DNA from: Fundicoccus culcitae
Lineage (GTDB): Bacteria > Bacillota > Bacilli > Lactobacillales > Aerococcaceae
Length of the DNA: 64,000 nucleotides
Reading direction: 5' to 3'
Assembly: GCF_024661895.1 (NCBI RefSeq)
Contig: NZ_CP102453.1
Coordinates: forward strand, 2,046,001-2,110,000
The notes under the pieces were generated by a model. That model had not been told where the DNA came from, did no database searches, and saw only the letters and a list, made by a program, of their open reading frames with translations. The position numbers and the translations under genes were made by a program. Shown here one piece after another: positions 2,231-60,790 of this stretch. Each line of letters starts with the position of its first letter. Within the stretch, counting starts at the first letter, position 1.

Positions 2231-3160
2231 TCAAATCCATTTATTTTTCTTAAACAACCAATAAATCACGACCATCAAAATTAACGAACTAAAATTCAAC
2301 AACAAATGTGCAAAATTATTATCACTAAAGGGTAATGGCACATTCATCCCCCAAATCCCCGAAATAATCGTCGGAATGGTCAAAATAATTGACCATACGG
2401 TTAATACCCGCATAATATTATTCAAATTATTATTCACCACATTCGACAAAATATCGCTGATTTTATCACTGTACTGCTTCAAGCGATGAATCGTCGATTG
2501 GGCTTGTTTTTGTTCAATCGAGACATCATGAATTTTTCCATGCAAAACTTCTACAGGTTCATTAGAATAATCAATATAATTTAAGGATTGAATGACGGAC
2601 TGATTTTGGTCGATGGCCACTTGGAAATTAACTAAGCCGCGATTAATCCCCATCAATTGATAAAATATCTCATTTTCTGTGCGATCCACCACGGTCATCT
2701 CTAATTCCATAATCATTGATTCAAGTTCGGCAATAAAATGTAGAAAGGTACGCGCGATGAGCCATAACAACTCGAGGGTTATCATCGTCGGCGTTTCAAA
2801 TACTGTTTTATCAGACTCTGTTAGTAAACGTGAAAAGATATCTTGAAAGGAAGCACGGTGACTCGTAATCAGTAATTCATGGTTGAAAATGATGGAGATG
2901 GCTTGCGTTTGATAGCGCAAACGAATATCTTCGTTTTCTAAAACAAAAGGATAAATAATGACTAAAAGGGTATACTCCTCACCTTTACTGTTCGTGTGCT
3001 TTTCAATCCGTGCAACCTCATCCGAATCCAAACTGCTCGTTAGAAAATCACGCGGAAAATTATAATCCGCAACTAGACGATCAATTTCTTCAGAAGCAGC
3101 TTCAATCAATTGAATCCAGTGATATTTATTAGAGGTTGAGGGGTTAATGGTTTTTATCAC
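2231..3160 (-). CDS. corA: CorA-family magnesium/divalent cation transporter
   Basis: About 309 residues. A long soluble alpha/beta and coiled N-terminal part is followed by two C-terminal membrane helices. The family signature GMN ends the first helix (GIWGMNVPLP). CorA proteins form pentamers that conduct Mg2+ (some members Co2+ or Ni2+). The start is set at a GTG (3160) eight bases after AGGAG; an ATG ten codons upstream has no ribosome site. The N-terminal stretch NPSTSNKYHW is encoded by a one-mismatch copy of the dispersed 15-mer (3116-3130). niaR starts 18 bp after the stop, so the two may be co-transcribed. Confidence 0.9.
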   Translation of the reverse strand: MIKTINPSTSNKYHWIQLIEAASEEIDRLVADYNFPRDFLTSSLDSDEVARIEKHTNSKGEEYTLLVIIYPFVLENEDIRLRYQTQAISIIFNHELLITSHRASFQDIFSRLLTESDKTVFETPTMITLELLWLIARTFLHFIAELESMIMELEMTVVDRTENEIFYQLMGINRGLVNFQVAIDQNQSVIQSLNYIDYSNEPVEVLHGKIHDVSIEQKQAQSTIHRLKQYSDKISDILSNVVNNNLNNIMRVLTVWSIILTIPTIISGIWGMNVPLPFSDNNFAHLLLNFSSLILMVVIYWLFKKNKWI

Positions 3161-3551
3161 GTTCTTCACTCCTTTGTGTAAGCTAATCATAGCATGTTTT
3201 GAGCTAGAATCGAAAAATTTTATAGCTTTGTAAGCGATTTATTGATACAATGTAAGCGGTATTCAGTTAAATGCAATTTGAAAGCTACAAATATATTGAA
3301 AGGAGATATTTGCGCTAAAGCAGACGAATGCCAACACGGTCATATCACTGCATTCACCCACGTTTACCTTCAAAAAAGGAACTAGATCAATGCATCTAGT
3401 CTCCCACTCCAGTCATTCTACAAACATTCCTGACATAAGCGATTAGGAATTTTTCTACCCTTTACCATTAAACAAACATTCCTAATTTTTTATGGGTTCT
3501 ATGAGACAATTTTAGCATAAGCAAAGAAAACAACCTAGAAAGGAAGCATAT
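3161..3551. other. Intergenic region with palindromes, no gene
   Basis: Between divergent corA and the orphan gene. It holds a hairpin ACTAGAT/ATCTAGT near 3380 and an imperfect ATTCCT/AGGAAT stem with a T run near 3425-3460, possibly a terminator. I see no reading frame with a ribosome site and recognise no RNA family. Confidence 0.5.
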
Positions 3552-4079
3552 ATGGGATTAGATATGTATTTAACCAAAAAAGCATCGGTTGATTTGGCAA
3601 AAGATGCTGATTGCAATGAAGTCATTGTATTTTCAAACGGAGAGATTGAAAAACATGTGCCAGAAGATGAGGATAAGACGCATAATGTCGAATTATATGG
3701 GGCTTATTGGCGCCAAGCGAATTGGGTGCATCATTGGTTTGTTGAAAATGTACAAGGCGGAAACGACAACTGTCAACCCTATGAAGTAGAAGAAAAACAA
3801 GTGGTTGAATTGTTGGAAATTGTCAACAAGTTACTCGATACCTATTATTTTGACGAAAAAAAGGCTGAGCGACTCGCAAAGAGACTATTGCCGCCGGTTG
3901 CCTGTGGCGCTATCTTCAATCACATGCAAATGGATGGCATCTATTGGAGTATTTTATTTGAGACACAACGCGAACTTAATCGAATTCTAGAAGATAAAGC
4001 CGCTGCCATCGAAATTATTGATGGAAAAAGCCATGAGATTCCACTGAACTATACCTACACCTATTTTGCTTGGTGGTAA
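3552..4079 (+). CDS. Conserved protein of unknown function (GLDMYL type)
   Basis: 175 residues, soluble, acidic, no signal peptide or membrane helix. It opens with MGLDMYL and has a Trp/His cluster (YWRQANWVHHWF, about residues 56-67). I recall similar proteins with this N-terminus in phages and Firmicutes, without a known function. The ATG follows AGAAAGGAAG. It is a single-gene unit facing away from corA. The Trp/His pattern could suggest ligand or metal binding, but this is speculation. Confidence 0.55.
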   Translation: MGLDMYLTKKASVDLAKDADCNEVIVFSNGEIEKHVPEDEDKTHNVELYGAYWRQANWVHHWFVENVQGGNDNCQPYEVEEKQVVELLEIVNKLLDTYYFDEKKAERLAKRLLPPVACGAIFNHMQMDGIYWSILFETQRELNRILEDKAAAIEIIDGKSHEIPLNYTYTYFAWW

Positions 4080-4228
4080 AACCAACAACTACTTAAAACC
4101 CCCTATTTAATAAATATCTCCTTAATACAAACTTCACGTTTACACTCACAACCATTAAATTCGGTAAAAACAATCATTCTCAATAATTGAAAAACAAATG
4201 TTAAGGGGATGTCAATTTAGACAAAACT

Positions 4229-4264
4229 ATCCGAACCTTCATCATGAAAGTTCGGATATTTTTA
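4229..4264. terminator. Terminator between convergent genes
   Basis: Perfect 8-bp stem ATCCGAAC/GTTCGGAT, loop of about 13 bases, then ATTTTT on the plus strand. It lies between the orphan gene and the convergent deacetylase gene and could serve both. Confidence 0.7.
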
Positions 4265-4268
4265 TGGC

Positions 4269-5606
4269 TTAATACCGATAATCATACTCTAATTCCGTGG
4301 GAGCTACGAAGCGGTAATGGTGTTGATTCAAATACTCTATTAAAGGTTCTAAAGCATCGACGGAAGCTTGGTTGGTATCATGTAACAAAATCAACATGTC
4401 ATCACTTAATTGTCGAATAATGTTTTGATAGATTTTCTCTGAATCTCTCACTTCCCAGTCTTCGGTGTCCGTATTCCAGGTAATAGATGTTAATTCCGGT
4501 ATTAAACGGTAAACACGTTCACCACCTGCACCATAGGGCATGCGATACAAACTTGGTCGAACACCGGTGGTGGTATAAATGATATCTTGAGTGACGTTGA
4601 TTTGATTGCGAACGTCATGGTCGCTAATTTCTGTAAAGTTGGGGTGATCATAGCTATGGTTAGCAATAATATGGCCTTCATCCACAATTTGCTTAGCCGT
4701 TTCAGGGTAGGTCTCAACATTTCGACCAACAACAAAGAATGTGCCTTGAATGTGATATTTATTTAAAATATCTAGAACTTGAGGGGTGTATTGGTCGTTA
4801 GGACCGTCGTCAAAAGTGAGAGCAATCTTGGGGCGCACATCTAATGTTGTTCCTTCAAGCATTGTTGTCATATAATCAGATTCGAATAAGGGCATTAACG
4901 TTTCATTGCTATAAGGTTGGCGTTGGTGTGACGCAGTGAGTTCCTCAATAAATAAATCCAGAAAGCGTTGATAGTCGGCTAAGTTATCTTGAATATGCGG
5001 TTGTTCTTGAACAAAATCGAGTTGGCTGTTAATGTCTTGGATTTTTTGGATGATTGTGGGTATTTGTTGGCGGGTCATGTGGGTATGGTTTTTAATGGTT
5101 GCCATATCTTGATTGACATTCGCAATAACTTGCCACTGATTTTGGGCTTGCAGGGTTAATTTATCAAATTCCTGGGTGGCGACATCTTCCATGGACCATT
5201 CAATCGGTTGAGTGAAGGCTTCTATCATATCTGAATCGACATCCGGGTAAAAAACCGTGTCGGATTGGTACAGTAGATCCAGCCGTTCTTGCGCCAATAA
5301 TTTTTGTGAAACTAACTCAACTTTAGGCATTAAATCGGTGCGGTGTTGACCTTTAAGGTGGCTCGCTTGACGGTTTAGATGGTCTATTTCTGAAGGCTCT
5401 ACAGCGTGTCGCAAATGACTTTGTGTCTCATCCTGATAGAGTGATTGCAGAGAGTTTTCAACGGCTTGAATTTGGTAAGGGGCATTAAAGGGCAACACAA
5501 TCACTAATAGGATATATAAGCCCAGTATCAGACAGGCGACAAGGAGGAGACTTTTTGGACCAAAGCGTTGTTGACAGTGCCGGTATAGTTTTTTAACAAG
5601 ATTCAT
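4269..5606 (-). CDS. Membrane-anchored polysaccharide deacetylase (NodB domain, PgdA-like)
   Basis: About 445 residues. One N-terminal membrane anchor (LLLVACLILGLYILLVIVL) is followed by a helical linker of about 200 residues and a C-terminal NodB domain. The NodB motifs are present in order: TFDDGP (catalytic Asp and metal Asp), HSYDH (metal His pair), YRMPYG, a Trp-Asp motif (TEDWE) and LLHDT. Such enzymes remove N-acetyl groups from peptidoglycan or other extracellular glycans, and PgdA gives lysozyme resistance. The ATG at 5606 follows GAGAGG; the upstream ATG lacks a site. It stands alone. The substrate is inferred. Confidence 0.85.
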   Translation of the reverse strand: MNLVKKLYRHCQQRFGPKSLLLVACLILGLYILLVIVLPFNAPYQIQAVENSLQSLYQDETQSHLRHAVEPSEIDHLNRQASHLKGQHRTDLMPKVELVSQKLLAQERLDLLYQSDTVFYPDVDSDMIEAFTQPIEWSMEDVATQEFDKLTLQAQNQWQVIANVNQDMATIKNHTHMTRQQIPTIIQKIQDINSQLDFVQEQPHIQDNLADYQRFLDLFIEELTASHQRQPYSNETLMPLFESDYMTTMLEGTTLDVRPKIALTFDDGPNDQYTPQVLDILNKYHIQGTFFVVGRNVETYPETAKQIVDEGHIIANHSYDHPNFTEISDHDVRNQINVTQDIIYTTTGVRPSLYRMPYGAGGERVYRLIPELTSITWNTDTEDWEVRDSEKIYQNIIRQLSDDMLILLHDTNQASVDALEPLIEYLNQHHYRFVAPTELEYDYRY

Positions 5607-5874
5607 GGAAACCTCTCTTTCTACGAAATGTGACAAATAGGCAATTTAAATTACATTTATATTATATAAATATTACCAAAAGATTACAACGAAATCGTTA
5701 ATCTTCATAAATCTTTCTTAATATATTCAAACTTAAGGCGAAAAAACATAAAAGCCATTCACTATCTTCACAGATAAATAATAAGTAACGCTTACAATGT
5801 AAAAGAGATATTGTTTCTCTGCCATGAATAATCATGGTATATTGTAATTAATCAAAGCGAAGGAGTTTGATAGA

Positions 5875-7305
5875 ATGAAGAAGTTATTGCTATTAGTAGG
5901 AACTGTTTTATTGATGTGGATTCCTGGGTTTGAGATGGTTGCCCAAGAGGAAGTGAGCCGTGAAGCGGCTATTGAAATGATTCAAACACCACTTGAGGGT
6001 GAAGCGTTATCGAATGAAGCAGCGGATGCTTTATTGGCTGAATGGGAAGCAAAGGTTTTGGAAGTTGGCTCCATTGCAAGTGACGATCGTTGGATTTTGC
6101 CAGAGTATTTACCTGAAGGATTAAATTTAGATCATAGCACACATATGGCGCTTATTACGTATTTAGAGAGTTATTTATTAGAACAGACCGTTGAAGAGGA
6201 AAGTGTTGTGGAAGAGGAAGCAGCATCGGAGGAATCTGTAGAGTCAATTGAAGAAGCAGCTGAGTATATTGATCCCTTAGAAGATTACTATGAGTATCGT
6301 ACCGTCATCAACAATTACTATACTGCGATTGAATATTATCAGGCTGGTGGCATTCCAGAGGGAGTTAACGTCACTGCCGTTGAACAAGCTCGTAATATAG
6401 AGATTGATCGCATGCTTCAATTTGCCTTAGTCGATTTGGATGGCAATGGTGTTGAAGAGTTATTGCTGATGAGTGGCGACCAAATTTTTGAAGTATACAC
6501 GACGGATATCAATGCCCAAGAACGCGTTGCGATTCCACTGTTTAAAGATGATCATCTCGTTGAACGCTCCTATTTAACCTTATATGAGGGCGGTTCGATG
6601 ATGGTCCTTGCATCCGGTGGTGCTGAATATGGTTTATATACCTTGTACCAAATGACAGCCGATGGTTTGGCAATTGAAGAAGTGGATGCCATGATGTATG
6701 ACTCGGTGGGGATGTCAGCCGAAGAGCCCTATTACCGTGAAGAAGATGAGACGACAACCTATACACAAGCAGAGTTTGATACAATTTTCGAAATGGATCA
6801 ACGTGTCACCTTAGATGTGGAAGCTCTTGATTGGTATCCAGTGATGGACACTGAAACCTTACAAGCCATTTTAGACCGTGAAGCCCAAGAGCTTGACTTA
6901 ACTACATATCCTTATGCCGTGGATTTTACTTCATTAGGTGACACCATGACTTTTACGATGGATGCGGTTAATGCACCGACACAAATTGAACTCGATTTAG
7001 TGAACCATCAATTGACGACGAGTTCCAATGGTAACAATGTTAATGTTTATCAAGTTAGTTTCGCTTATGTTGACGAAACGGTCATTCGCGTCTTTTCACA
7101 AAATAATCCGAGTGAAATCCGGACGGTTTCAGCCAATACGGCGATTACACTTAACGATATTGTAGAAGGATCCCAAGCTGAAGTCATCGGACAAACTTTT
7201 TACCTATTTTATAATGCCAATGGAGGAATATCGTTAGCTACAGCCAATTTTGCGGGGAATGTCGAGCCTGATCAAGTAGATGTTATGTTGGAGTATGTCT
7301 ATTGA
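5875..7305 (+). CDS. Secreted acidic protein of unknown function
   Basis: 476 residues. A signal peptide (MKKLLLLVGTVLLMW, cleavage probably near VAQ-EE) leads into an acidic protein with a Glu/Ser-rich low-complexity stretch near residues 104-128, then a segment LVDLDGNGVEELLLM that looks like a Ca2+-binding DxDGNG loop as in FG-GAP or dockerin-like repeats. No catalytic motif is evident. The ATG follows GAAGGAG. A perfect CCATGA/TCATGG palindrome at 5822-5837 sits in the promoter region and may be an operator. It precedes two further secreted proteins. Function unknown. Confidence 0.7.
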   Translation: MKKLLLLVGTVLLMWIPGFEMVAQEEVSREAAIEMIQTPLEGEALSNEAADALLAEWEAKVLEVGSIASDDRWILPEYLPEGLNLDHSTHMALITYLESYLLEQTVEEESVVEEEAASEESVESIEEAAEYIDPLEDYYEYRTVINNYYTAIEYYQAGGIPEGVNVTAVEQARNIEIDRMLQFALVDLDGNGVEELLLMSGDQIFEVYTTDINAQERVAIPLFKDDHLVERSYLTLYEGGSMMVLASGGAEYGLYTLYQMTADGLAIEEVDAMMYDSVGMSAEEPYYREEDETTTYTQAEFDTIFEMDQRVTLDVEALDWYPVMDTETLQAILDREAQELDLTTYPYAVDFTSLGDTMTFTMDAVNAPTQIELDLVNHQLTTSSNGNNVNVYQVSFAYVDETVIRVFSQNNPSEIRTVSANTAITLNDIVEGSQAEVIGQTFYLFYNANGGISLATANFAGNVEPDQVDVMLEYVY

Positions 7306-10174: not shown

Positions 10175-10665
10175 TCAAACAGTACCCCATCCACCCCAAA
10201 TACAGGATCCGTTGTAGGTAGAGGCAGCTGTGCAATACGGTGTAAGTTTTCGGGGCGTTCATCGGCTTTACCGGTAAGTAAATCATATTCATGGCCATCA
10301 GGATAAGCACCAATAACCGTAAAATCCGTTGAAGCATTTAAACGTTTATGCCCAACACCTGCAGGAATCACAACCATATCACCCGCCTTAAGCGTAAACA
10401 CAATGCCATTAGCACCGCCACCTAACTGAACCTCAGCCCAGCCCGCTTCAACACCTAGCACTTCATGTGAGGTGCTATGATAGTGGTGATAATTGAAAAT
10501 ACCGTTACGCCAAGCCTTCGTCCAATTATTTTCACTAAATATCGCTGCAATAACGTCACTAGCATCAAACACCTGGGAATAAATCAACAGGGGTAGTTTG
10601 GGATTATTGGGGATTTTGCCATCATCTTCAAAAAACACAGCCTGAACCTGGGGATATTTATTCAT
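10159..10665 (-). CDS. Cupin-fold protein, YjlB type
   Basis: 168 residues. The cupin metal motif is seen in YHHYHSTSHEVLGV (His ligands, Glu) and in PAGVGHKRL (second-motif His). Length and sequence fit the YjlB-like cupins, whose enzymatic activity is unknown to me. The start ATG follows AAGGAGC. The first codons (MNKYPQ) coincide with the core of the dispersed AATAAATA motif. Convergent with, and overlapping by 16 bp, the upstream secreted gene. Probably cytosolic and metal-binding. Confidence 0.75.
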   Translation of the reverse strand: MNKYPQVQAVFFEDDGKIPNNPKLPLLIYSQVFDASDVIAAIFSENNWTKAWRNGIFNYHHYHSTSHEVLGVEAGWAEVQLGGGANGIVFTLKAGDMVVIPAGVGHKRLNASTDFTVIGAYPDGHEYDLLTGKADERPENLHRIAQLPLPTTDPVFGVDGVLFDYWVY

Positions 10666-10824: not shown

Positions 10825-11742
10825 ATGCGTACAGAATTATTATATTTATATGACGATCGCAAGGATGTTACTTTGAAGGCCTACCTACTGGAAGATAATG
10901 TGAATTTAAGACCCAAGAAGACGTTACCCGCCATCATTATTAATCCGGGTGGCGGTTATATGTACTGCTCTCCCCGTGAGGCTGAACCGATTGCCCTTCG
11001 TTTCAATGCCATGGGCTACCATGCTTTTGTGTTAGAATATTCAGTTTACGGCGAAGGCAAGTATCCTTTTGAATTAGATTCAGACTTACCCGTAAAGGAA
11101 CATTCACTTTTCCCGCATGCCATGCAAGAAATTGCCATGTCATTCGAACTGATTCACCAACATGCTGCGGAGTGGAAAGTCGACACGAACCAAATTGGCA
11201 CCATTGGCTTTTCAGCTGGCGGCCATAACGTCGCCATGTACGCTAACAACTGGAATACCCCCGTCATTCAAGACGCTGTTTCCTTGAAAGGCGACGCCCT
11301 AAAACCTGCCTTCAATATCGTAGGCTACCCCTTAACCGACCTAATAAATATCACTGCCAACATCGAAGATTTAAATACTGTGGCAGAAGCCAAGCCAATT
11401 TTAATCGCCTGCTTTGGGAAATCAGATGTATCGCAAGCCGAATTGGAATATTACAGCCCAGCTAGGAACGTTAATTCTGACACACCCCCTACCTTTATTT
11501 GGACAACCTCTGAAGATCAAGTGGTAGCTGCCCAGGATTCCATTCAATTAGCTTTAGGCTTAGCCCACAATAATATCCCCTTTGAATTGCATGTGTTTGA
11601 AAAGGGTCCTCATGGTTTATCATTAGCCAACCCATCTACCGCTCGAGCTGCTGAACACATCAACCCTAAAGCAGCCACATGGGCCGAAATGGCCGAAAAA
11701 TGGCTCAACGACCGCTTTCCCGTGGAAGCACTCGATATGTAA
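10825..11742 (+). CDS. Alpha/beta-hydrolase, esterase family
   Basis: About 305 residues. The oxyanion-hole motif NPGGGYMYC (an HGGGY equivalent), the nucleophile elbow GFSAGGH, an acidic residue near TSEDQVV and the late His in EKGPHGLS complete the triad of the acetylesterase/lipase-like (BD-FAE, AXE) group. It probably cleaves acetyl or short acyl esters, for example on plant xylan. The upstream ATG at 10813 is part of the GGAGG site, so the start is 10825. The codons for LINITAN contain an exact dispersed 15-mer (11343-11357). A single-gene unit. Confidence 0.8.
   Translation: MRTELLYLYDDRKDVTLKAYLLEDNVNLRPKKTLPAIIINPGGGYMYCSPREAEPIALRFNAMGYHAFVLEYSVYGEGKYPFELDSDLPVKEHSLFPHAMQEIAMSFELIHQHAAEWKVDTNQIGTIGFSAGGHNVAMYANNWNTPVIQDAVSLKGDALKPAFNIVGYPLTDLINITANIEDLNTVAEAKPILIACFGKSDVSQAELEYYSPARNVNSDTPPTFIWTTSEDQVVAAQDSIQLALGLAHNNIPFELHVFEKGPHGLSLANPSTARAAEHINPKAATWAEMAEKWLNDRFPVEALDM
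11343..11357 (+). repeat. Dispersed 15-mer AATAAATAYCNCTGC, exact copy in the esterase gene
   Basis: AATAAATATCACTGC, on the coding strand inside the esterase gene. See the finding on the dispersed motif. Confidence 0.8.
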
Positions 11743-12380: not shown

Positions 12381-12559
12381 TTTTTTAACTCCTCATTTAT
12401 CATAGGTGCATACGAGAACATGTAAAAAACGATAGCGACAACTTGTGCATGAGAAGCTATGGGATCCTTCATAGAATAATCCAGAGATATTTATTAAAAG
12501 TGATTGTATTTGTTTTTAAAATGTGCTATTATAATTTTTGTTGTTCTGATAAAGACAAT

Positions 12560-21579: not shown

Positions 21580-21581
21580 AA

Positions 21582-21596
21582 TAAATATCACTGCCT
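21582..21596 (+). repeat. Dispersed 15-mer, exact copy after GNAT copy 1
   Basis: AATAAATATCACTGC, two bases after the TAA stop of GNAT copy 1, on the coding strand. Confidence 0.85.
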
Positions 21597-23185: not shown

Positions 23186-23200
23186 AATAAATATCTCTGC
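23186..23200 (+). repeat. Dispersed 15-mer, exact copy between pdxK and ctsR
   Basis: AATAAATATCTCTGC in the shared upstream region of divergent pdxK and ctsR, about 60 bp upstream of the ctsR -10 box. Here it is not next to a stop codon. Confidence 0.8.
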
Positions 23201-26268: not shown

Positions 26269-26409
26269 TCCAAATAAATATCGCTAATTCTTTCAAAATT
26301 TCTGCTTTCTAAAAGGCGTATTAATTTAATCTAATCAAAGGATATGCTATACTAGGTTTACACTAAAAGAGCAAGTTATTGCTACAAAATTGTGTAAGGA
26401 GGAAATCAA

Positions 26410-26799: not shown

Positions 26800-26851
26800 T
26801 GGACTTTTTTCAAAATAGGCACCGCCAGTTGGCTGGTTTCAGGGGTATTTA

Positions 26852-27751
26852 TTAGAGGGGTTTGGCGTCGAATTCTTTTTCAACGGCTTCGATTAGTTTA
26901 GCGTTGAAGTTCAACTGGGCAGGGATCTGATCGGTTTCGTTGTTTAAAACCAGATTGATGTAGAACAACGGGCTGTCTTTGAGTGGGATGGCGATAATAT
27001 CCGTTCGATCTTTTACAAGGGTATCAATCATCAAGCCAACACGGATACCGGAGGCGATGATGGAATGGGCGGTTGGGATTTCATCGGTATACAGAACATT
27101 GGTCGTATCGATGTTATTTTCTGATGCCCATTTTGTAAAGAGTTTATGATGCAAATAGCCTTTAGATAAAGATAGGAAGCTCTGGCCAGCGAGTTGTTCG
27201 GCTGAGATTTCACTGTATTTGGCTAAAGGGTGGGTGGTGGACACACAAACAGAGAGCGGCTTGGCATCAATTTCATATTGCGTCAACCAGCGTTCATGCA
27301 AGGGTGAGCCGTCTAAGCCAACAATGGCAGCTGGGACTTTGCGTGTACGGATAAGTTGTAACATTTCATCGGAACTTTCTTCTTCAACCAATTTTAAATC
27401 GGAAATAAATTCAGTTAGATAAGGCAAAATGCGCGTAAAATAAGCGCCCCCGATGGTTGGTAAGAATCCAAAGTAGACATTTTGTGAATTAAGGTTAGCA
27501 ATCTCAGTCTTGGTATTGTTAAACAGATTTAACATTTCGATGGTTCTTTGGTAGAGAAGTTGCCCTGAAGGGGTGATTTGAATGTGCTTGGTTGATCGAT
27601 TCCGTTTAATTAAGGTTGAATTAAACTCATCTTCTAACCGTTTTAGGGCGATGGAAATGGATGGCTGAGATACGAAAAAATGCTCAGCAGTTTTCGTGAA
27701 ACTCAGGCTTTCGGCTAAGTATTTGAAGTATTCTAAGTCTCTTAAGTTCAT
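26852..27751 (-). CDS. LysR-family transcriptional regulator
   Basis: 299 residues. N-terminal winged HTH (LRDLEYFKYLAESLSFTKTAEHFFVSQPSISIALKRLE) and a C-terminal periplasmic-binding-protein-like effector domain. Divergent from lrgA with a ~200-bp shared region, which suggests it controls the lrgAB-lactate oxidase genes, as CidR-type LysR proteins do for cid/lrg operons. The effector is inferred to be a metabolite of pyruvate, lactate or acetate metabolism. A core dispersed motif (26842-26853, minus strand) begins on its TAA stop. Confidence 0.85.
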   Translation of the reverse strand: MNLRDLEYFKYLAESLSFTKTAEHFFVSQPSISIALKRLEDEFNSTLIKRNRSTKHIQITPSGQLLYQRTIEMLNLFNNTKTEIANLNSQNVYFGFLPTIGGAYFTRILPYLTEFISDLKLVEEESSDEMLQLIRTRKVPAAIVGLDGSPLHERWLTQYEIDAKPLSVCVSTTHPLAKYSEISAEQLAGQSFLSLSKGYLHHKLFTKWASENNIDTTNVLYTDEIPTAHSIIASGIRVGLMIDTLVKDRTDIIAIPLKDSPLFYINLVLNNETDQIPAQLNFNAKLIEAVEKEFDAKPL

Positions 27752-30367: not shown

Positions 30368-31240
30368 CTAGATCGCCAAATAACACAAAATCAAATCGGG
30401 TAAGTGCTGTAAATTATAGCCTGTCTCTTTGTAAAATTTGTTCATCCGATAAGTTAAGGTGTTGCGATGAATGAACAACTGATCCGCTGTCTGTGATAAG
30501 TTGCCTTGGTTTTCAAACAACTTGGTAATCGTAGAAATGTAGTCCGGATGCGTTAAAATGGTCTGTTGAACCCGGCGTAATAAAGGCTGTTCGTTATAAA
30601 AACTCCGTCCCATCATACGCAACAAAGTAATCGGTAACGTCGAAAAGGGTTGAATATAATCATTTTTTAAAGCCTGTTCAAACAAGTCCACTTCTAATTG
30701 ATACAATTCAGGTAATTGCGAATTCACTTGATAAGTTTGCCCAACCAAAGCTTTGGTAATCAAATCAAAGTCAGAATCTAATGTTTGTAACACAGCATAC
30801 AAATCTTCCACCAATTTCCCTTCTGCCTCATCCATTGACAACACAATGGTCAAGCGACGCTCAGTATACGGAATGGTCGCAATAATGGCAGGGATGGCTT
30901 CACTTAAAGTCTCTAACCACAAAACATACTCAAAATTTTCTGGTAAAGCCTGAAAATCTAAATGCAACCAACGCACAGAAGCCGCATTGCTAGGCATATC
31001 CGTTGATTGGCCTAACAAAAAACGACTCCAAGGCGACAAAGACTGAGGATAAGATTGGCCAACCTCAGCCGTCCTTTCATCAAGCATGGCCAACAAAGCC
31101 TGTTCTTTTTCACCCACCTGGTCCGCGGGAATATATAAATCATCGCCATCAAGCACAAGATGGATATAGGCAGAGGTATTTATTGGGGTTGAGGGGTTGA
31201 TCAGTAAATCGGGGTACAACTTTTTTAACGACTGGTACAT
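30368..31240 (-). CDS. PucR/CdaR-type transcriptional regulator
   Basis: About 290 residues. The C-terminal HTH_30 motif (NLSQTADQLFIHRNTLTYRMNKFYKETG) is typical of PucR/CdaR regulators; the N-terminal ~220 residues are not an obvious GAF or sugar-diacid domain. The frame extends to 31474, but that part is only the shadow of tadA; the ATG at 31240 follows GAAAGGATG. Divergent from tadA. The codons for INTSA contain an exact dispersed 15-mer (31170-31184). The target is unknown. Confidence 0.75.
   Translation of the reverse strand: MYQSLKKLYPDLLINPSTPINTSAYIHLVLDGDDLYIPADQVGEKEQALLAMLDERTAEVGQSYPQSLSPWSRFLLGQSTDMPSNAASVRWLHLDFQALPENFEYVLWLETLSEAIPAIIATIPYTERRLTIVLSMDEAEGKLVEDLYAVLQTLDSDFDLITKALVGQTYQVNSQLPELYQLEVDLFEQALKNDYIQPFSTLPITLLRMMGRSFYNEQPLLRRVQQTILTHPDYISTITKLFENQGNLSQTADQLFIHRNTLTYRMNKFYKETGYNLQHLPDLILCYLAI
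31170..31184 (-). repeat. Dispersed 15-mer, exact copy inside the PucR-type gene
   Basis: On the minus strand AATAAATACCTCTGC, on the coding strand near the N-terminus. It is preceded by AACCCCTCAACC, as is the copy at 3116 in corA. Confidence 0.8.
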
Positions 31241-31296: not shown

Positions 31297-31311
31297 AATA
31301 AATATCACTGC
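31297..31311 (+). repeat. Dispersed 15-mer, exact copy upstream of tadA
   Basis: AATAAATATCACTGC, about 10 bp before the tadA ribosome site, in the region between two divergent genes. Confidence 0.8.
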
Positions 31312-33948: not shown

Positions 33949-34037
33949 AAATGCTCCTTTTTTATTAAATACCACTGCGACTCGCCGACAGAAACTACTA
34001 ACCGCTACTTTAGTGCTTCACGCCTCCTTTTCTGCAT

Positions 34038-36042: not shown

Positions 36043-36144
36043 AATCCCACTCCTTCCTTTTCTTCAAAATTATACCACACGATACCATTTCTTTTCAGTT
36101 CGAACCCCATCTATAGTAAAATAAATATCACAGCAACAAGGTAG

Positions 36145-36254: not shown

Positions 36255-36977
36255 ATGAGAAATTGGATCGTGTGTTTAGCAGGGATATTTATTTTAGGGG
36301 GTTCAGGGGTTAGTGCTCAGACGTCGGTTTTGGATGAGTGGGCGGCGATGGATTCATACGAGATGGTGGTGGGACGCGATTATTATGTGGTGGATAGTGA
36401 AAATCAGCGGATGTTAGTGATTTTTGATATTGGGCGTGATTCCGAGACGTATGCCTATTACTATCCGGAGGCACGTTTGGCGGACATGGTGTATTATTAC
36501 GAGGAAGATTTTGACGTGGTGAATACATTCGATGTGGCTTTGGAGGATTTTTATGACAAGGTCGGGACACTGAGCGAGATTGTGGATGGGCGTTATGTCT
36601 TGTTGGATGAGGCTTATCATGAAAGTTTGTTTGAAAACTATTTTGAGCGGTTGCTGGATTTTGAAGCGGTGGCGACGACCGAAGGTGACGTCGTTAGCTT
36701 GGAATTTATGGCAAGCGCTGAGTTGACTGAGGCTTATGTACGCTTTGCGCCGTTTGACGCGGATGCTTTGACAGCTTTTGAGTTAGTCTTGGAGGTCAAC
36801 GAAGCGGATCAAACCGTGGTGGCTTATGAAAACTATGCAACCGAAGACCAAGCGGCGACCATAAAGCGGGAATTCGCAGAAGCCTTTGAGCCCGTGCCCA
36901 TGCGTGGAGAAGTGCCGTATTTGTTGGCCGAAGATTTTGATGAAATAGTGTTAGATTTAGGATTGCCGTTGTATTAG
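36255..36977 (+). CDS. Secreted protein of unknown function
   Basis: 240 residues. Signal peptide MRNWIVCLAGIFILGGSGVSAQ, cleavage probably after VSA. The mature part is acidic and aromatic-rich (DYYVVDSENQ; YAYYYPEARL) with no Cys after the signal and no known domain. ATG after GGGGGAGAACGG, preceded by DnaA-like boxes. The signal-peptide codons AGIFI hold an exact dispersed 15-mer in antisense orientation (36279-36293). Followed by the UDG-family gene after 15 bp. Confidence 0.6.
   Translation: MRNWIVCLAGIFILGGSGVSAQTSVLDEWAAMDSYEMVVGRDYYVVDSENQRMLVIFDIGRDSETYAYYYPEARLADMVYYYEEDFDVVNTFDVALEDFYDKVGTLSEIVDGRYVLLDEAYHESLFENYFERLLDFEAVATTEGDVVSLEFMASAELTEAYVRFAPFDADALTAFELVLEVNEADQTVVAYENYATEDQAATIKREFAEAFEPVPMRGEVPYLLAEDFDEIVLDLGLPLY
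36279..36293 (-). repeat. Dispersed 15-mer, exact copy in a signal-peptide coding segment
   Basis: On the minus strand AATAAATATCCCTGC; antisense to the gene that contains it, unlike most copies. Confidence 0.8.
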
Positions 36978-39509: not shown

Positions 39510-39536
39510 TTCAACTAAATACCTCTGCAACACTTT

Positions 39537-40829: not shown

Positions 40830-41174
40830 ATGACTGACAGTTCACGTAAAAAAATACTAATGGGTATATCAATCCTTATTATGGTATACAGCTTATGGAC
40901 AGCTTGGGAAAGCTATGTCTATATCCAATCAATTGTCGCAGAGGGATTTATTGTAAGTGAAAATATTTCAATTGTAGTGAATTACTTTGTGGAAGGCGGC
41001 TTGAAATATTTAGTGGTCGGAATCATATTATTCTTGTACAGTCTGCCTAATAAATTTCCCCAAGAAACCGAGGTTGAAAGTACTTCGGGAGTTGAAGAAA
41101 CGGTAGAAATAGTTGAAGAAAAAGAGCCAGTGATTGAAGAGAATCTTCTTGATGAATGGGAGGTTGCCGACTAG
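40830..41174 (+). CDS. Small membrane protein of the ABC cassette
   Basis: 114 residues, two membrane helices (ILMGISILIMVYSLWTAW and GLKYLVVGIILFLYSL) and an acidic Glu-rich C-terminal tail. Its start follows one base after the ATPase stop, and its stop abuts the permease ATG, so it belongs to the operon. I do not recognise the family; a permease-accessory role is inferred from position alone. Confidence 0.65.
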   Translation: MTDSSRKKILMGISILIMVYSLWTAWESYVYIQSIVAEGFIVSENISIVVNYFVEGGLKYLVVGIILFLYSLPNKFPQETEVESTSGVEETVEIVEEKEPVIEENLLDEWEVAD

Positions 41175-43440: not shown

Positions 43441-44801
43441 AACAATCATTATTTTGGCGTATTTGGTTCTTAACAGCTACAGCGATTATTGTTAGTGCAA
43501 TGCTTTTTTTGGTGGTCTTTTCCCTGTTTGCGAATCAGTTCATTTATAATTCTCAGCTTAATGCTTTTACAAATTCGGTGGAAGAGATACGTTTACAAGT
43601 TGAAGATACAGATACACTGGATGAGACGTTTATTAACGAAGTACTCTTTGATTATGAACAAAGAGGCTTTTCATTTATGATTATTAACAATGATATTTAT
43701 TTGAAATATCCAATCCCTGGAATTATTGTAGATGCATCAGAAACAGAATCGCATCTTTTTTATCAGATTAACACCAATCGGGGACCGCTTATCCAATCTT
43801 TGGACAAGAGCACGACCTTGATTGAAAACATTCCAATAAATAACGCTGAATTATTAGTTTATTATCCTATTTCGTTTGGAACAAGTGATATGCGGTCAAT
43901 GTTTGAAACCATTTTACCTTTGTTTGCGGTCATTAGTCTGATTGTCGCGACGATTGTATCACTACTCTATTCCTTGTACTTCAGAAAACGCATCAAAGGT
44001 ATTCAGCTGATGTTGGAAGAAATGGCTACCTTAACTTATGAACCGCCACAAGAAGCGTTTGAAGGCGATGAGATTGAACAACTTAAAGTCAATATCATTG
44101 TGATGTACGAGCGTTTACGCCAAACATTAGAGCAACTGCAAAATGAAATCGACGTCGTGAAGCGTTTTGAAAATGATCGCTTGTTATTTATGCGAGGTTC
44201 AATTCATGAGTTAAAAACACCATTAATGATTATGATGACTCAATCCAAAAATGCCATTGAGGCATCCGAATCGGATAAAGAATTATTGACGATGTTGTAT
44301 TCGAAAATGGAAGCAATGAACAAACTTATCAATGAAGTCTTAGCCTTATCAAAAGTAGAAGATATCAAATCATTAGAACCTATCAATATCACAGAAGTTA
44401 TCACAGAGGTTCTAGCTGAGTATGAGTATATGATATCGGATAAAATGATTAGTTTGACAAAAGATGATACCCCCATTTATGCAAACTTATCATTATCCGC
44501 AGCTAAAAAAATTGTATCTAACTTGCTGAGTAACGCGGTTAAATATGTGCCGAATGGTGGAGAAATTGTGATTGAACACCGTGATCAAACCATCGTTTTT
44601 CGCAATACCGTCCAAAACAATTTGCAGCTAGACATGAATCGCATATTAGAACCATTTGTCAGTTTTGACAATGATGACGACTCAGAATTATCAGGTAGTG
44701 GGCTTGGTCTCTATATCGTCGCAACATTCCTAACACACTACAACCTAACGTACGACTGTTACTTAGAAGACAATTGGTTCATCTTTAACATCCACCTTTA
44801 A
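43437..44801 (+). CDS. Sensor histidine kinase
   Basis: 454 residues. Two membrane helices enclosing an extracytoplasmic domain of about 130 residues, HAMP-like linker, H-box in SIHELKTPLMIM (His ~254), N-box NLLSNAVKYVPNGG, G-boxes GSGLGLYIVAT. Overlaps the regulator by 4 bp (ATGA). Same cassette as the ABC exporter, so it probably senses its cargo or envelope state. The TAA stop lends its AA to an exact 15-mer. Confidence 0.9.
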   Translation: MKQSLFWRIWFLTATAIIVSAMLFLVVFSLFANQFIYNSQLNAFTNSVEEIRLQVEDTDTLDETFINEVLFDYEQRGFSFMIINNDIYLKYPIPGIIVDASETESHLFYQINTNRGPLIQSLDKSTTLIENIPINNAELLVYYPISFGTSDMRSMFETILPLFAVISLIVATIVSLLYSLYFRKRIKGIQLMLEEMATLTYEPPQEAFEGDEIEQLKVNIIVMYERLRQTLEQLQNEIDVVKRFENDRLLFMRGSIHELKTPLMIMMTQSKNAIEASESDKELLTMLYSKMEAMNKLINEVLALSKVEDIKSLEPINITEVITEVLAEYEYMISDKMISLTKDDTPIYANLSLSAAKKIVSNLLSNAVKYVPNGGEIVIEHRDQTIVFRNTVQNNLQLDMNRILEPFVSFDNDDDSELSGSGLGLYIVATFLTHYNLTYDCYLEDNWFIFNIHL

Positions 44802-44814
44802 TAAATACCTCTGC
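44800..44814 (+). repeat. Dispersed 15-mer, exact copy at the histidine kinase stop
   Basis: AATAAATACCTCTGC; the first AA are the last bases of the TAA stop, on the coding strand. Confidence 0.85.
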
Positions 44815-46124: not shown

Positions 46125-46363
46125 TTAAATCGCTCCTTTATTTATTCTACTTAAAGTATACGTCCCCTTTAATCATCCTACCTTGATCTAAATCAAGTTT
46201 TTGCTCACGCCTAGGCGGTGATATTTATTTAAATAAATATTCTCAGAAATAAACTTTTACTTAAATTTGGCCTTAAGTGAAAACAGAAATATTTCTTCAT
46301 AGCATGTGGCTCTATTGTTCGTTATAATATTAAGCAGAGAAACAAGAAAGGAAGTGAATAAGC

Positions 46364-51911: not shown

Positions 51912-52670
51912 GTGATGCCATCAGCTAATACCGTCCCCTTAAAAGCCAACGAACGCATTGATGAATTGATACGTGAACAATTACAAATCATTCAAAGCCG
52001 CGACTATTTTACATTCTCGGTGGATGCTGTTTTGTTAGCGGATTTTATAACGGTGGCTAAAACGAAACCGCAACGGATTATAGACTTTTGCACCGGAAAT
52101 GGCGTCATCCCCTTGTTGCTTAGCCACAAAACTGACAACAAAATTGAAGGCCTTGAAATCCAAGCCGATTTGGTCGATATGGCTCAGCGGAGCCTGACGT
52201 TAAATCAACTGAACGATCAAATAACGATTCGTCAAATGGACATTAAAGAATTACAAAAGCCGGCCCACTTGTATGATGTGGTTTCTTGCAATCCGCCTTA
52301 TTTTCTGGTGGAAGACACCAAAGAAGCCCATCACTTGTCGTCGCACGCCATTGCACGCCATGAAATTCATTTAAGTCTCGAGGATTGGATCGCTAAAGCC
52401 GCCCTTATCATGCGTGATCGGGGCAAACTCTTTTTCGTCCACCGACCCAACCGCCTCGATGATATTATGCAAACCCTAAATAAATATCACTTTTCCATCC
52501 ATAGGATGCGCTTCGTGCACCCCAAAGCGGACAAAAACGCCAACGGCGTCCTCGTTGAAGCGATTTATCGCGGGGGCAATCACGGGGTAAAAATTTTACC
52601 CCCGGTGGTGGTGCATGATGCGGATAATCAATATACCGCGGAAATGAAGGCTATTTATTTTGGAGAATAA
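51912..52670 (+). CDS. tRNA1(Val) (adenine37-N6)-methyltransferase, TrmN6/YabB
   Basis: About 252 residues. SAM motif [13 protein letters not shown] and N6-methylase NPPYF motif ([11 protein letters not shown]). ATG/GTG start region at 51912-51915 after AAGGAG; an upstream ATG (51882) is possible. A core dispersed motif occurs in its coding strand at 52479-52490. Conserved neighbour of yabA and yazA. Confidence 0.88.
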
Positions 52671-53004
52671 CACGCATTATTTTTATGTTTTATATTGTCA
52701 AGATCACAGTTTATATGCTGGCTACACCAATAATTTAACAAAACGTTTGCAAACCCATAATGATGGCAAAGGAGCTAAATATACCCGCGCAAGCCATCGC
52801 CGGCCAGTCCATCTGCTTTATGCCGAAGCTTGGCCAACCAAGGAAGCCGCTATGCAAGCCGAATGGCGCTTCAAACAATTGCAACGGCCTGCTAAAGAAG
52901 CGTATCTCAAGCGGGAAGGTGTCGCGCAAGTGACTGCGACAGGGGTATTTATTTTGAATCAAAAAAATCTGGATGGGGAGGGGCAAGATGCAAAAACAGA
53001 GTAG
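52660..53004 (+). CDS. GIY-YIG domain protein YazA
   Basis: 114 residues. Begins [24 protein letters not shown], the GIY-YIG signature (VLYC, AGYT), with Arg and Glu catalytic candidates in KRLQTH and AEWRFK. Starts at a TTG overlapping the trmN6 end by 11 bp. Small orphan GIY-YIG proteins of this kind have no settled substrate. Confidence 0.85.
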
Positions 53005-56295: not shown

Positions 56296-57036
56296 ATGTC
56301 ATTTTTTGGAAATATCGATTTCAACGAACTAACCGAAACTGAGCGCTACATTTACGATTTTATGACGAGCAATAGCAACAAAATACCCTACATGCGCGTA
56401 CGTGAAATTGCGGATGAATCGCACACATCAGCCTCATCGGTGATGCGCTTTATTCGCAAACTAGGCTATGAAAGTTTCACTGATTTCCGCTCACATTACC
56501 AAACGTCGAAAGTGGAACTCAACGATTTACTCGATGGACTGAACATCTTAAATAAAGATAATTTCCCAACCGATTTAGCGGCCAAACTCCGCCAAGTAGC
56601 CGTCATCATTAGAGATTGTGAAAACCTAGTGTTCGTAGGGATTGGATCTTCAGGTGCGATTTGTGAATATGCGGCCCGACGGTTTGCCCTCCTAGGCTAC
56701 AACACCTACCCGATGACCGACCCAACCTATCCCATTTTCGCTAAACTCAGAAACACATCCAACAATGTGGCCATCATGTTGTCCGTCTCTGGAGCAACGA
56801 CTGAACTGCTCGAATTAGCCAACGGCTTCAAGAACAAACGCGACTTCACAACCGTCGCCATCACAGGTGCCGCCGAAAGTACCCTGGCAAAAATGTCCGA
56901 GCACGTCCTTAGTTACCGCGTGGAACGCCGCACCCTGCATCGCTACGAAGACATCACGAGCCAAATCCCTAGTATTTTCCTCATCGAATCCCTCTCAGAA
57001 GCCGTTCTGCAATTCGAAGAACCCCAACCCGAATAA
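56296..57036 (+). CDS. RpiR-family transcriptional regulator with SIS domain
   Basis: 246 residues. N-terminal HTH_6 (MRVREIADESHTSASSVMRFIRKLGYESFTDF) and C-terminal SIS domain (VFVGIGSSGAICEYAARR, MLSVSGATTELLELA) that binds a phosphosugar. Single gene with its own terminator, upstream of the GH1 gene it likely controls. TAA stop inside an exact 15-mer. Confidence 0.9.
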   Translation: MSFFGNIDFNELTETERYIYDFMTSNSNKIPYMRVREIADESHTSASSVMRFIRKLGYESFTDFRSHYQTSKVELNDLLDGLNILNKDNFPTDLAAKLRQVAVIIRDCENLVFVGIGSSGAICEYAARRFALLGYNTYPMTDPTYPIFAKLRNTSNNVAIMLSVSGATTELLELANGFKNKRDFTTVAITGAAESTLAKMSEHVLSYRVERRTLHRYEDITSQIPSIFLIESLSEAVLQFEEPQPE

Positions 57037-57046
57037 ATACCCCTGC
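57032..57046 (+). repeat. Dispersed 15-mer, exact copy at the RpiR stop
   Basis: AATAAATACCCCTGC; contains the TAA stop (57034-57036), on the coding strand. Confidence 0.85.
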
Positions 57047-57109: not shown

Positions 57110-57197
57110 ATTTCCGATTAGTGGTTTTCAACCTAAATCAAGGCAATCCATTGTTATGCCCCAAAAAGCCACCTATACTTAAACACAAAGGAAGTGA

Positions 57198-58646
<1,449 letters not shown>

Positions 58647-58816
58647 TAAATATCCCCACACCCTTGCCCAGCTTGCGCTTGGTACAAAGTGTACCACGAT
58701 GAAGTCTGGGCTCATTATTATGAAATCGCCATCAAGATGGCCCTCATCTATTGTTTACAATCTGAGAATAAAATATACTGATTTTACATTAAAAAAAGGA
58801 AAGCGGTTAAATAAAA

Positions 58817-58832: not shown

Positions 58833-58839
58833 AAAAACT

Positions 58840-59856
58840 ATGACTAATAAACGCTCCACAATTAAAGATATTGCCCGCAAAGCCAATGTATCCATTGCGA
58901 CGGTGTCGAATGTTTTAAACGATATTGATGTCGTTAAACCTAAGACGCGTCAACATGTCTTACAAATCGCTAGCCAATTAAACTATGTGCCTAATTTACG
59001 TGCAAAACAATTACAATCTGGTCAAACCAAAATGATTGGGTTCTTTTGTAACTCTATTTCGGGACCTTACTTTAATCCTTTAGCGGAGTCAATCGCAAAA
59101 ATAGCGGAAGAAAATGGTTATGGGATTAATATTCTTTTATCGAATGACCAAAGCATGTTAAGACGCAATATTTTAGGCGATTTAGTTGATGGAATTATCG
59201 GTTTTGAAGATTTAATCACGGATAAGGAACTCCAACTCATAAGAACTAACCGTATTAAAGCGGTATTTATTGATCGGATTATTCAAGATGAAACGATTGG
59301 CAGTGTGGTGTTTGACTCTTATCAAAAAGGCAAAGAAGTTACCGACTACCTAATTCAACAAGGGCATCAAAAGATAGGCTTTATTTTAGGTAAAGACGAT
59401 ATTTATGACAGCAACGAACGCTTTCGTGGTTATAAAACGGCCATGGAAAAAGCAAACTTAAAAGTGAATCCCAATTATATTTTTAAAGGTGAGTTTGAGT
59501 TGGAACCAGCTTTTCAAGTTATCGAACAGTTCTTAACAACAACGGCTAGAAAAGACTATCCAACGGCGATCATTGCCGGAAATGATCTGAGTGCAATCGG
59601 CGCCTATCGAGCCATCAAACAACAAAAGATTCGCATTCCGGAAGAAATAAGCCTCGTTAGTTTTGATGGTTTTGATTTAGATTCACCCCACCGACCAAAT
59701 TTAACCGGCATTCATAATCCGATTGTAGAGCAGGCTAAATTTGCCGTTGAACACTTAATTGCCATGATTCACAATCAAACACCAGGTAAAGTCCAAACCA
59801 TTGAAGGGCACTTTGTTGTCGGCGAAACGGTCCAACAAAGAGCGGAGGAGAGATGA
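58840..59856 (+). CDS. LacI-family transcriptional regulator
   Basis: 338 residues. N-terminal HTH (TIKDIARKANVSIATVSNVLNDID) with hinge, then a periplasmic-binding-like sugar domain (GYKTAMEKANL, YPTAIIAGNDLSAIGAYRA). Likely controls the ROK-ABC genes that follow. Oddly there is no Shine-Dalgarno before the ATG; the operator sits there instead. The ROK gene starts one base after its stop. Confidence 0.9.
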   Translation: MTNKRSTIKDIARKANVSIATVSNVLNDIDVVKPKTRQHVLQIASQLNYVPNLRAKQLQSGQTKMIGFFCNSISGPYFNPLAESIAKIAEENGYGINILLSNDQSMLRRNILGDLVDGIIGFEDLITDKELQLIRTNRIKAVFIDRIIQDETIGSVVFDSYQKGKEVTDYLIQQGHQKIGFILGKDDIYDSNERFRGYKTAMEKANLKVNPNYIFKGEFELEPAFQVIEQFLTTTARKDYPTAIIAGNDLSAIGAYRAIKQQKIRIPEEISLVSFDGFDLDSPHRPNLTGIHNPIVEQAKFAVEHLIAMIHNQTPGKVQTIEGHFVVGETVQQRAEER

Positions 59857-59857
59857 C

Positions 59858-60790
59858 ATGTATATAGGAATTGATGTAGGTGGAACCACCATTAAATATG
59901 GTTTGTTAACCACAACCGGTGAAGTGATTGAAAAACAAGCAATCCCAACACCTAAAGAAAGGAATGCCTTTATTGATACACTGGTAGATTTAGTTAACCA
60001 ACTGGCAGCCAAGGAAGACATCCAAGGTATCGGCATTTCGATGCCAGGTATTGTGCGCAAGGACGGTTATTTATTGACCGCTGGTTCGATTAAAGAACTA
60101 GACGACTGTCCCCTCAGAGATATTTTGTTAGAAAAAACCGATAATAAATATCCCATCGTCATCGAAAATGATGCCAACTCGGTTGCTTATGCAGAAAAGT
60201 GGATTGGGAATGCGCAAGGTAGAGATAATTACGTGTGCCTGGTTTTAGGGACAGGCGTCGGTGGAGGCATTGTGATTAACGGTGATATTTATAGAGGGGC
60301 GCATGGGATGGCGGGCGAGTTTGGGTGGATGTTAATCGACAAACTACCTCCGCAAGGCAATATTGAGAGTGCATCAGCTAACTATCGGGCAGCGGTGGTT
60401 TTAGGCTTGTGCCAGCAATATAACCAATTGAAATTAGCGGAAAATCCAAATTTTGAACCAATTAATGATGCGCGCATTATTTTCGATACAGAGGATAGTG
60501 ATCCTTTCGCGGCTTTTGCTTTAAAGAATTTTTATCGCGATGTGGCGATTACCCTTTTGAATTTATATGTGAGCTTTGATCCAGAACTTATCTTAATTGG
60601 TGGTGCTATTAGTACTAATCCTTACTTTATGGAGCGTTTGCGTGAAACAGTTGAACATTATAGCAAGCGGCATAATAGTATTGCTTACTTAATTGGTAAA
60701 ACAATTGCACCAATTAAGGCGACTTATTTACAAAATGATGCCGGTATGATTGGGGCTGTTTATCGTTTGCATCAACAAATTAATAGTTAG
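59858..60790 (+). CDS. ROK-family sugar kinase
   Basis: About 310 residues. ATP motif YIGIDVGGTTIKYGLL, GTGVGGGIVINGDIYRG, catalytic Asp in IENDANSVAYAE, adenosine motif ILIGGAIS. As with the 19785 protein, GEFG is followed by WMLIDK and no CxC zinc cluster is seen. Start at 59858 after GGAGGAG, the longer frame being spurious. Likely phosphorylates the imported or released monosaccharide. Confidence 0.85.
   Translation: MYIGIDVGGTTIKYGLLTTTGEVIEKQAIPTPKERNAFIDTLVDLVNQLAAKEDIQGIGISMPGIVRKDGYLLTAGSIKELDDCPLRDILLEKTDNKYPIVIENDANSVAYAEKWIGNAQGRDNYVCLVLGTGVGGGIVINGDIYRGAHGMAGEFGWMLIDKLPPQGNIESASANYRAAVVLGLCQQYNQLKLAENPNFEPINDARIIFDTEDSDPFAAFALKNFYRDVAITLLNLYVSFDPELILIGGAISTNPYFMERLRETVEHYSKRHNSIAYLIGKTIAPIKATYLQNDAGMIGAVYRLHQQINS

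What the first reader, a model, noticed from the sequence alone, without database searches (positions are those of the whole stretch)
3116..60157. Dispersed 15-mer AATAAATAYCNCTGC tied to stop codons and coding-strand orientation
Seen directly: nine exact copies (11343, 21582, 22244-, 23186, 31170-, 31297, 36279-, 44800, 57032) and about six with one mismatch (3116-, 12481-, 33964, 36120, 39514, 52939-), plus a dozen core copies. By chance far less than one exact copy is expected in 64 kb. Of the copies lying just downstream of a gene (4109, 21582, 22244, 26273, 26842, 32996, 39514, 44800, 48856, 57032, 58645) all are on the coding strand of the preceding gene. At five of these (22244, 26842, 44800, 57032, 58645) the motif is built on the TAA stop. 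Others sit inside genes without disrupting them. Dispersed uptake signals (DUS/USS), Chi-like sites and RNA 3'-end signals are possible explanations; I know no such motif described for these bacteria. It is not a terminator: no stem and no T run.
Basis: partly seen in the sequence, partly recalled or inferred. Interest (0 to 1): 0.88.

Follow-up and report, generated by a model that had tools for sequence, protein, structure and literature searches.

The report
Directional DNA tag shaping one genome
One Gram-positive bacterium carries a 15-base DNA tag over 500 times, and the DNA on one side of the tags has on average been pushed towards C on one strand only, which suggests that the tag marks where single strands of DNA enter the chromosome, much like the DNA-uptake tags known so far only from a few other bacterial groups.

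Summary
The motif is real. Within one mismatch there are 542 copies in the 3.22 Mb genome, against 8 for the reversed control. The exact 14-mer occurs 317 times here and at most 4 times in any of 397 other genomes of the order. The overlap with stop codons is real and follows largely from the TAA inside the motif.

The main new result is a polar, strand-asymmetric halo. On the 5' side of the motif only, third-position C on the motif strand rises from 0.13 to 0.32 while G stays near 0.15, decaying over about 0.3-0.6 kb. It appears in sense genes, antisense genes and intergenic DNA, scales with match quality, and is nearly absent from orthologous codons of relatives. Same-strand sites avoid each other within 750 bp; convergent pairs are enriched and some form hairpins.

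Best explanation: a lineage-specific uptake or recombination signal, working like DUS/USS, at which the motif strand is integrated from a 3' end at the motif. Uptake was not tested. Chi-like and mutational hotspots remain rivals.

The parts
2034..2048 (+). motif copy, 1 mismatch, antisense in gene 1685-2212
3116..3130 (-). motif copy, 1 mismatch, sense in gene
10534..10548 (+). motif copy, 1 mismatch, antisense in gene
11343..11357 (+). exact motif copy, sense in gene
12481..12495 (-). motif copy, 1 mismatch, intergenic
21580..21594 (+). exact motif copy, directly after a stop codon
22244..22258 (-). exact motif copy overlapping a stop codon, sense
23186..23200 (+). exact motif copy, intergenic
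26839..26853 (-). motif copy, 1 mismatch, overlapping a stop codon, sense
31170..31184 (-). exact motif copy, sense in gene
31297..31311 (+). exact motif copy, intergenic, divergent pair with 31170
33964..33978 (+). motif copy, 1 mismatch, intergenic
36120..36134 (+). motif copy, 1 mismatch, convergent pair with 36279
36279..36293 (-). exact motif copy, antisense in gene
39514..39528 (+). motif copy, 1 mismatch, between a stop codon and a terminator-like hairpin
40938..40952 (-). motif copy, 1 mismatch, antisense in gene
44800..44814 (+). exact motif copy overlapping a stop codon, before a terminator-like hairpin
46215..46229 (-). motif copy, 1 mismatch, intergenic
52939..52953 (-). motif copy, 1 mismatch, antisense in gene
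57032..57046 (+). exact motif copy overlapping a stop codon, sense
26273..26287 (+). weaker copy, 2 mismatches, score 19.9
43687..43701 (-). weaker copy, 2 mismatches, score 21.3
52479..52493 (+). weaker copy, 2 mismatches, score 19.2
58645..58659 (+). weaker copy, 2 mismatches, overlapping a stop codon
44300..44799 (+). example of a 5'-side halo zone (the 500 bases before the motif at 44800). Pooled over the 30 window sites scoring 14 or more, the zone 20-500 bp upstream has third-position C 0.278 and G 0.158, against 0.189 and 0.200 downstream; not measured for this site alone

Best explanation
The motif is a lineage-specific recognition signal for exchange of self DNA, working like the DNA uptake sequences (DUS/USS) of Neisseriaceae and Pasteurellaceae, in a Gram-positive bacterium of the Lactobacillales. 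Proposed mechanism: the competence machinery, or a nuclease coupled to it, recognises the roughly 23-base signal (pyrimidine tract plus AATAAATAYCNCTGC) in double-stranded DNA and frees a 3' end of the motif strand at or near it. That strand enters 3' end first and replaces the homologous strand in the recipient, so the 0.3-1.5 kb on the 5' side of the motif is exchanged most often. Repeated exchange spreads the motif by drive and leaves the halo because C on the incoming strand survives mismatch correction, or is favoured, more often than other bases. Shown: the over-representation, the DNA-level strand-specific polarity, the decay, the dependence on match quality, the absence from relatives, the orientation-dependent spacing, and the presence of com genes. 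Inferred: that uptake is the process, the 3'-first entry, and the reason for the C bias.
For: 542 copies against 8 for the control; 317 exact 14-mers against at most 4 in 397 other genomes of the order. No replication-strand bias, 187 leading and 194 lagging. Intergenic density about three times that of coding DNA, with sense and antisense copies both common. Third-position GC skew 20-200 bp upstream is -0.303 [-0.337, -0.266] and downstream +0.016, also -0.257 in intergenic DNA; for 20-500 bp it is -0.212 against -0.005 with sd 0.017 at random positions. The halo follows the motif strand in both sense and antisense genes. Upstream C falls with mismatches.296.260.230.183.166 for 0 to 4. Orthologous codons of relatives: -0.084 against -0.363 here. 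Same-strand pairs closer than 750 bp: 25 against 62 expected; convergent pairs closer than 100 bp: 14 against 4.6. No sites in a prophage stretch. Intact comGA-GG, comEA, comEC; dprA and mutS domains found in uninterrupted frames. In-gene copies mostly align without gaps to orthologs, 13 of 16, so most arose by substitution. Known DUS/USS share the lack of orientation bias, the excess in non-coding DNA and the inverted pairs (PMC1939737, PMC1852404, PMC7811141).
Against: No uptake data and no receptor identified. Relatives with related com genes lack the motif, and no congener is held. Unlike neisserial DUS, sites are not enriched in conserved genes: 35% of conserved and 33% of other genes have one. 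No polar halo is known to me for DUS/USS, and uptake in H. influenzae is reported to be independent of USS orientation (PMC1939737). The C-only bias is explained only by an untested argument about mismatch correction.
Confidence: 0.5

Rival explanations
1. A Chi-like polar recombination hotspot: a helicase-nuclease such as AddAB, entering from the 3' side, switches at the motif and leaves a 3' tail of the motif strand whose 5' side recombines with incoming homologous DNA.
For: The polarity (5' side, motif strand, short decay) is what a Chi-type 3' tail would give. An addB homolog is present.
Against: No leading-strand bias. The motif is 15 bases against 5-8 for known Chi sites (own knowledge). 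Large stretches, including housekeeping genes, have no site. Repair from identical sisters would not change composition.
Confidence: 0.2
2. A mutational hotspot: an enzyme nicks or breaks the motif strand at the motif, the strand is chewed back on its 5' side and resynthesised with a bias to C. No DNA exchange is involved.
For: The halo is strand-specific, polar and decays with distance, and the C gain is seen in every neighbour context.
Against: It does not explain why the motif itself has multiplied, why same-strand copies avoid each other, or the symmetrical GC rise on the 3' side. No candidate enzyme was found.
Confidence: 0.15
3. An RNA 3'-end or termination signal (including C-rich, G-poor Rho-type loading upstream), as the stop-codon association suggests.
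For: 41 sense overlaps with stop codons; some convergent pairs form strong hairpins; several copies lie just before terminators.
Against: More than half of in-gene copies are antisense, downstream copies show no strand preference, and the halo in antisense genes follows the motif strand, not the gene. The TAA in the motif accounts for much of the stop overlap.
Confidence: 0.05
4. A small mobile repeat that spread by insertion.
For: Hundreds of near-identical copies in one genome only; 3 of 16 in-gene copies fall at alignment gaps, above the 4% null.
Against: No shared flanks beyond about 30 bases, 13 of 16 in-gene copies align without gaps, and insertion does not explain a kilobase-scale polar halo. 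The group II intron-like elements are not tied to the motif in the copies read.
Confidence: 0.05

Closest known systems
Uptake signal sequence (USS) of Pasteurellaceae
   Same: Hundreds of copies, core plus flanking signal, intergenic excess, no replication-strand bias, inverted pairs able to form hairpins, lineage-specific
   Different: Different sequence and a Gram-positive host; a polar C halo on the 5' side, not known to me for USS; uptake by H. influenzae is reported as independent of USS orientation (PMC1939737)
DNA uptake sequence (DUS) of Neisseriaceae
   Same: As above; relatives use other or no dialects
   Different: No enrichment in conserved genes here; no receptor such as ComP known; no sequence relation
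Chi sites (RecBCD/AddAB)
   Same: Non-palindromic, polar action expected on the 5' side of the motif strand
   Different: Much longer motif, no leading-strand bias, absent from large stretches
Eukaryotic recombination hotspot motifs (PRDM9 type) with GC-biased gene conversion
   Same: A sequence motif at the centre of a composition halo made by repeated exchange
   Different: Here the strong part of the halo is one-sided and one-stranded (C only), in a bacterium

Membership tests
DNA uptake sequences (DUS/USS) | Hundreds to thousands of copies, far above chance | tested here: met
   542 copies with up to 1 mismatch, control 8
DNA uptake sequences (DUS/USS) | No orientation bias with respect to replication | tested here: met
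   187 leading, 194 lagging, p = 0.76
DNA uptake sequences (DUS/USS) | Present in genes on both strands, with an excess in non-coding DNA | tested here: met
   104 sense, 140 antisense; about three times denser between genes
DNA uptake sequences (DUS/USS) | Close inverted pairs forming terminator-like hairpins | tested here: met
   14 convergent pairs under 100 bp against 4.6 expected; two of four folded pairs are strong hairpins, z -6.8 and -7.3, the other two are weak
DNA uptake sequences (DUS/USS) | Competence machinery encoded | tested here: met
   comGA-GG, comEA and comEC, dprA; expression unknown
DNA uptake sequences (DUS/USS) | Enriched in conserved genes, rare in recently acquired DNA | tested here: inconclusive
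   No difference by conservation; none in a prophage stretch and a restriction-modification stretch, but also none in one housekeeping stretch
DNA uptake sequences (DUS/USS) | DNA with the motif is taken up preferentially | not testable with these tools
   needs uptake assays
DNA uptake sequences (DUS/USS) | Same signal or a dialect in close relatives | tested here: inconclusive
   Absent from other genera of the family and order; no congener held; no comparable motif seen in samples of G007, G015 and G017
Chi sites | Leading-strand orientation bias | tested here: not met
   187 leading, 194 lagging
Chi sites | Short (5-8 bases) and frequent | tested here: not met
   13 fully specified bases in a 15-mer, about one site per 3 kb
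Chi sites | Polar effect on the 5' side | tested here: inconclusive
   Polar halo of the right sense, but in composition, not in recombination
Chi sites | Recognised by AddAB/RecBCD | not testable with these tools
   addB homolog present; recognition needs biochemistry

The most novel reading that the evidence does not exclude
A previously unknown directional self-recognition system in Gram-positive bacteria: a 15-base signal sets the 3' end of a single strand that is repeatedly exchanged into the chromosome, and this one-sided, one-stranded exchange has rewritten silent positions of about a third of the genes with an excess of C.
Probability: 0.45. Interest if true: 0.92.

Novelty: new variant of a known kind. 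Interest (0 to 1): 0.82.

Why it matters
PMC1939737 names only Pasteurellaceae and Neisseriaceae as preferring DNA with specific short sequences, and I know of no uptake signal in a Gram-positive. The polar halo looks like a fossil record of which strand and which side of the signal was exchanged. If it is read correctly, it makes the direction of DNA entry, the length of integrated tracts and the bias of mismatch correction measurable from a single genome, and it gives a test that can be run on every suspected uptake signal.

Tried and rejected
Coding-strand or transcription signal: rejected by the sense/antisense counts and by the halo in antisense genes. Replication-linked signal: no strand bias. 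Mobile repeat: no shared flanks, mostly ungapped orthologs. Reverse-transcriptase-driven change: the four RT genes look like ordinary group II introns (three compared, near-identical); the copy read in full sits just after a terminator, not in the motif. Enzyme-specific mutation context: none found. A special competence pilin: the candidate ComGG has homologs in 24 other genomes of the family. A comparable motif in relatives: not found in samples of three genomes. Naming the species by dnaX in genome contigs failed; the best named hits were only 48% identical. Literature searches for uptake signals in Firmicutes, GC skew around them, or the motif letters found nothing pertinent.
Full report
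Observation. The motif AATAAATAYCNCTGC has 35 matches with up to two mismatches in the window against 1.4 expected, with no shuffle reaching that number. In the whole genome (one contig of 3,224,940 bases; the window is 2,046,001-2,110,000) there are 280 forward and 262 reverse copies with up to one mismatch, against 5 and 3 for the reversed control. Sixty relatives show 0-9 copies, at background level. In 398 genomes of the order the exact 14-mer occurs 317 times here and at most 4 times elsewhere. No other genome of the same genus appeared among those searched.

Sample. I took 60 stretches of 20 kb spread over the genome plus the window (1.264 Mb) and called genes with a simple codon-usage caller (1107 genes). 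The aligned copies show the 15-mer core, a pyrimidine tract at -8 to -1 in which G falls to 3-8%, and weak preferences to about +22; beyond that the flanks are unrelated. With the weight matrix there are 381 sites scoring 14 or more against 15 in reversed sequence, roughly one per 3 kb.

Placement. In-gene sites are 104 sense and 140 antisense; density is about three times higher between genes. Sense copies avoid the one frame in which the motif carries a stop. Sites overlapping a stop codon are 41 sense and 11 antisense, 25 of the 41 using the motif's TAA as the stop; non-overlapping sites within 150 bp downstream are 38 sense and 39 antisense, and within 150 bp upstream of starts 58 and 70. 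So the coding-strand rule in the finding is a small-sample effect, and the stop-codon link is largely what a motif containing TAA can afford. Sites show no replication-strand bias, 187 and 194. They are absent from 20 kb stretches holding a prophage (portal, terminase), a type I restriction locus, a polysaccharide locus and also one housekeeping region. Having a site does not depend on conservation of the gene.

Spacing. Compared with random placement in the same stretches, same-strand pairs are depleted below 750 bp (25 against 62, P about 1e-7), while convergent pairs are enriched below 100 bp (14 against 4.6). Two of four folded convergent pairs make strong hairpins, z about -7. This is the arrangement expected if each site serves its own 5' side.

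The halo. Although the motif is AT-rich, genes with sites are GC-rich at silent positions: site density rises from 0.018 per kb for genes with GC3 below 0.2 to 0.60 for GC3 above 0.55, and GC3 falls steadily with distance from the nearest site, from 0.43 to 0.25. When positions are oriented by the motif the effect splits in two: a modest symmetrical rise of G and C on both sides, and a strong rise of C alone on the motif strand, on the 5' side only. Silent two-fold sites show it cleanly: in genes on the motif strand C/(C+T) climbs from 0.17 to 0.485 towards the motif while G/(A+G) stays near 0.2; in genes on the other strand G/(A+G) climbs from 0.19 to 0.40 while C/(C+T) stays flat. It is therefore a property of the DNA strand, not of codons or transcription. 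It is a pooled effect: of 368 sites with enough data, 76% show negative upstream skew and 47% negative downstream skew.

Controls for the halo. GC skew at 20-200 bp is -0.303 (95% interval -0.337 to -0.266) upstream and +0.016 downstream; intergenic DNA gives -0.257; genes with clear homologs in relatives give -0.370; random positions give -0.005 with sd 0.017 against -0.212 observed for 20-500 bp. Two halves of the sample agree, and the window alone gives -0.364 and +0.011. Upstream C declines with each mismatch in the motif and reaches background at four. Other 8-mers of the same composition give -0.02 with sd 0.03. The gain is seen in all neighbour contexts. In orthologous codons of relatives the upstream skew is only -0.084 against -0.363, so the halo arose in this lineage. 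The decay length is about 310 bp over all sites and about 600 bp for sites with no other site upstream.

Origin of copies. Of 16 in-gene sites with alignable orthologs, 13 align without gaps: most copies arose by base substitution in place, as uptake sequences do. Three gaps exceed the 4% null, but the number is small.

Machinery. The genome encodes a full comGA-GG pilus operon, comEA and comEC, two dprA homologs, a mutS homolog and an addB homolog. The last pilin gene has homologs across the family, so it is not an obvious lineage-specific receptor. Four group II intron-like elements are present; none of the copies read is tied to the motif.

Interpretation. A lineage-specific, dispersed, strand-neutral signal with inverted pairs and an intact competence system works like DUS/USS. 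The polarity suggests that the exchanged strand is the motif strand with its 3' end at the motif; 3'-first entry of single strands is the established direction in pneumococcal transformation (own knowledge). The gain of C from both A and T, with G unaffected, could come from incoming C surviving mismatch correction better than other bases; this step is inference. A Chi-like site would give the same polarity but does not fit the length, the lack of leading-strand bias or the site-free stretches. A nick-and-resynthesis hotspot would give the halo but not the spread or the spacing of the motif.

Known background. PMC1939737 states that preferential uptake of DNA with specific short sequences is a feature of Pasteurellaceae and Neisseriaceae, that these sequences show no orientation bias, are over-represented in non-coding DNA and are about 10% inverted repeats, and that uptake does not depend on orientation. 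PMC1852404 and PMC7811141 describe inverted pairs as terminators. I found no report of a polar composition halo, nor of an uptake signal in a Gram-positive; only open-licence papers could be searched.

Limits. One genome per species, a 39% sample for all positional statistics, home-made gene calls, no uptake data, and no USS/DUS genome at hand for the same test.

Noticed in passing
G000 sample, e.g. L061 about 1414300, L049 764769, L074 2176851; L079 2460879; L055/L076; window about 11930 and 12266: Several families of clustered GC-rich hairpin repeats (GGACAGAA...TTCTGTCC, TTGCCGGAC...GACGTCCG, GCGCACACATATT...TTGTTGTGAGCGC), many of them in GC-rich stretches. G017 has its own families (CTACCACGATAGT, ATTCCGTGG).
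   Followed up: partly
L048 712289, L063 1512368, L084 2718301, L094 1073184: Tandem arrays of ACGAACTACATTTTTATAGTTCGT-type units, 84 copies of the 10-mer in four stretches.
   Followed up: no
L066 1674100-1677400: Large CRISPR-like array with about 52 repeats GTCGCACTCCTCGTGAGTGCGTGGATTGAAAT.
   Followed up: no
G000:C1 460259, 524723, 2878439, 3068671: Four group II intron-like elements with a 313-residue reverse transcriptase frame (three compared are near-identical over 1.88 kb); the copy at 2878439 sits directly after an intrinsic terminator.
   Followed up: partly
window 1-5900 (G000:C1 about 2.05 Mb): GC skew and gene orientation flip near the start of the window and again near 0.486 Mb, suggesting that the replication origin lies at or near the window start.
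   Followed up: no
L087 5588-10219: 1543-residue surface protein with many repeated modules and a C-terminal LPATGE-type anchor; several motif sites lie in the same stretch.
   Followed up: no
G000:C1 395032 and 1237480: Two dprA homologs, frames of 329 and 413 residues.
   Followed up: no
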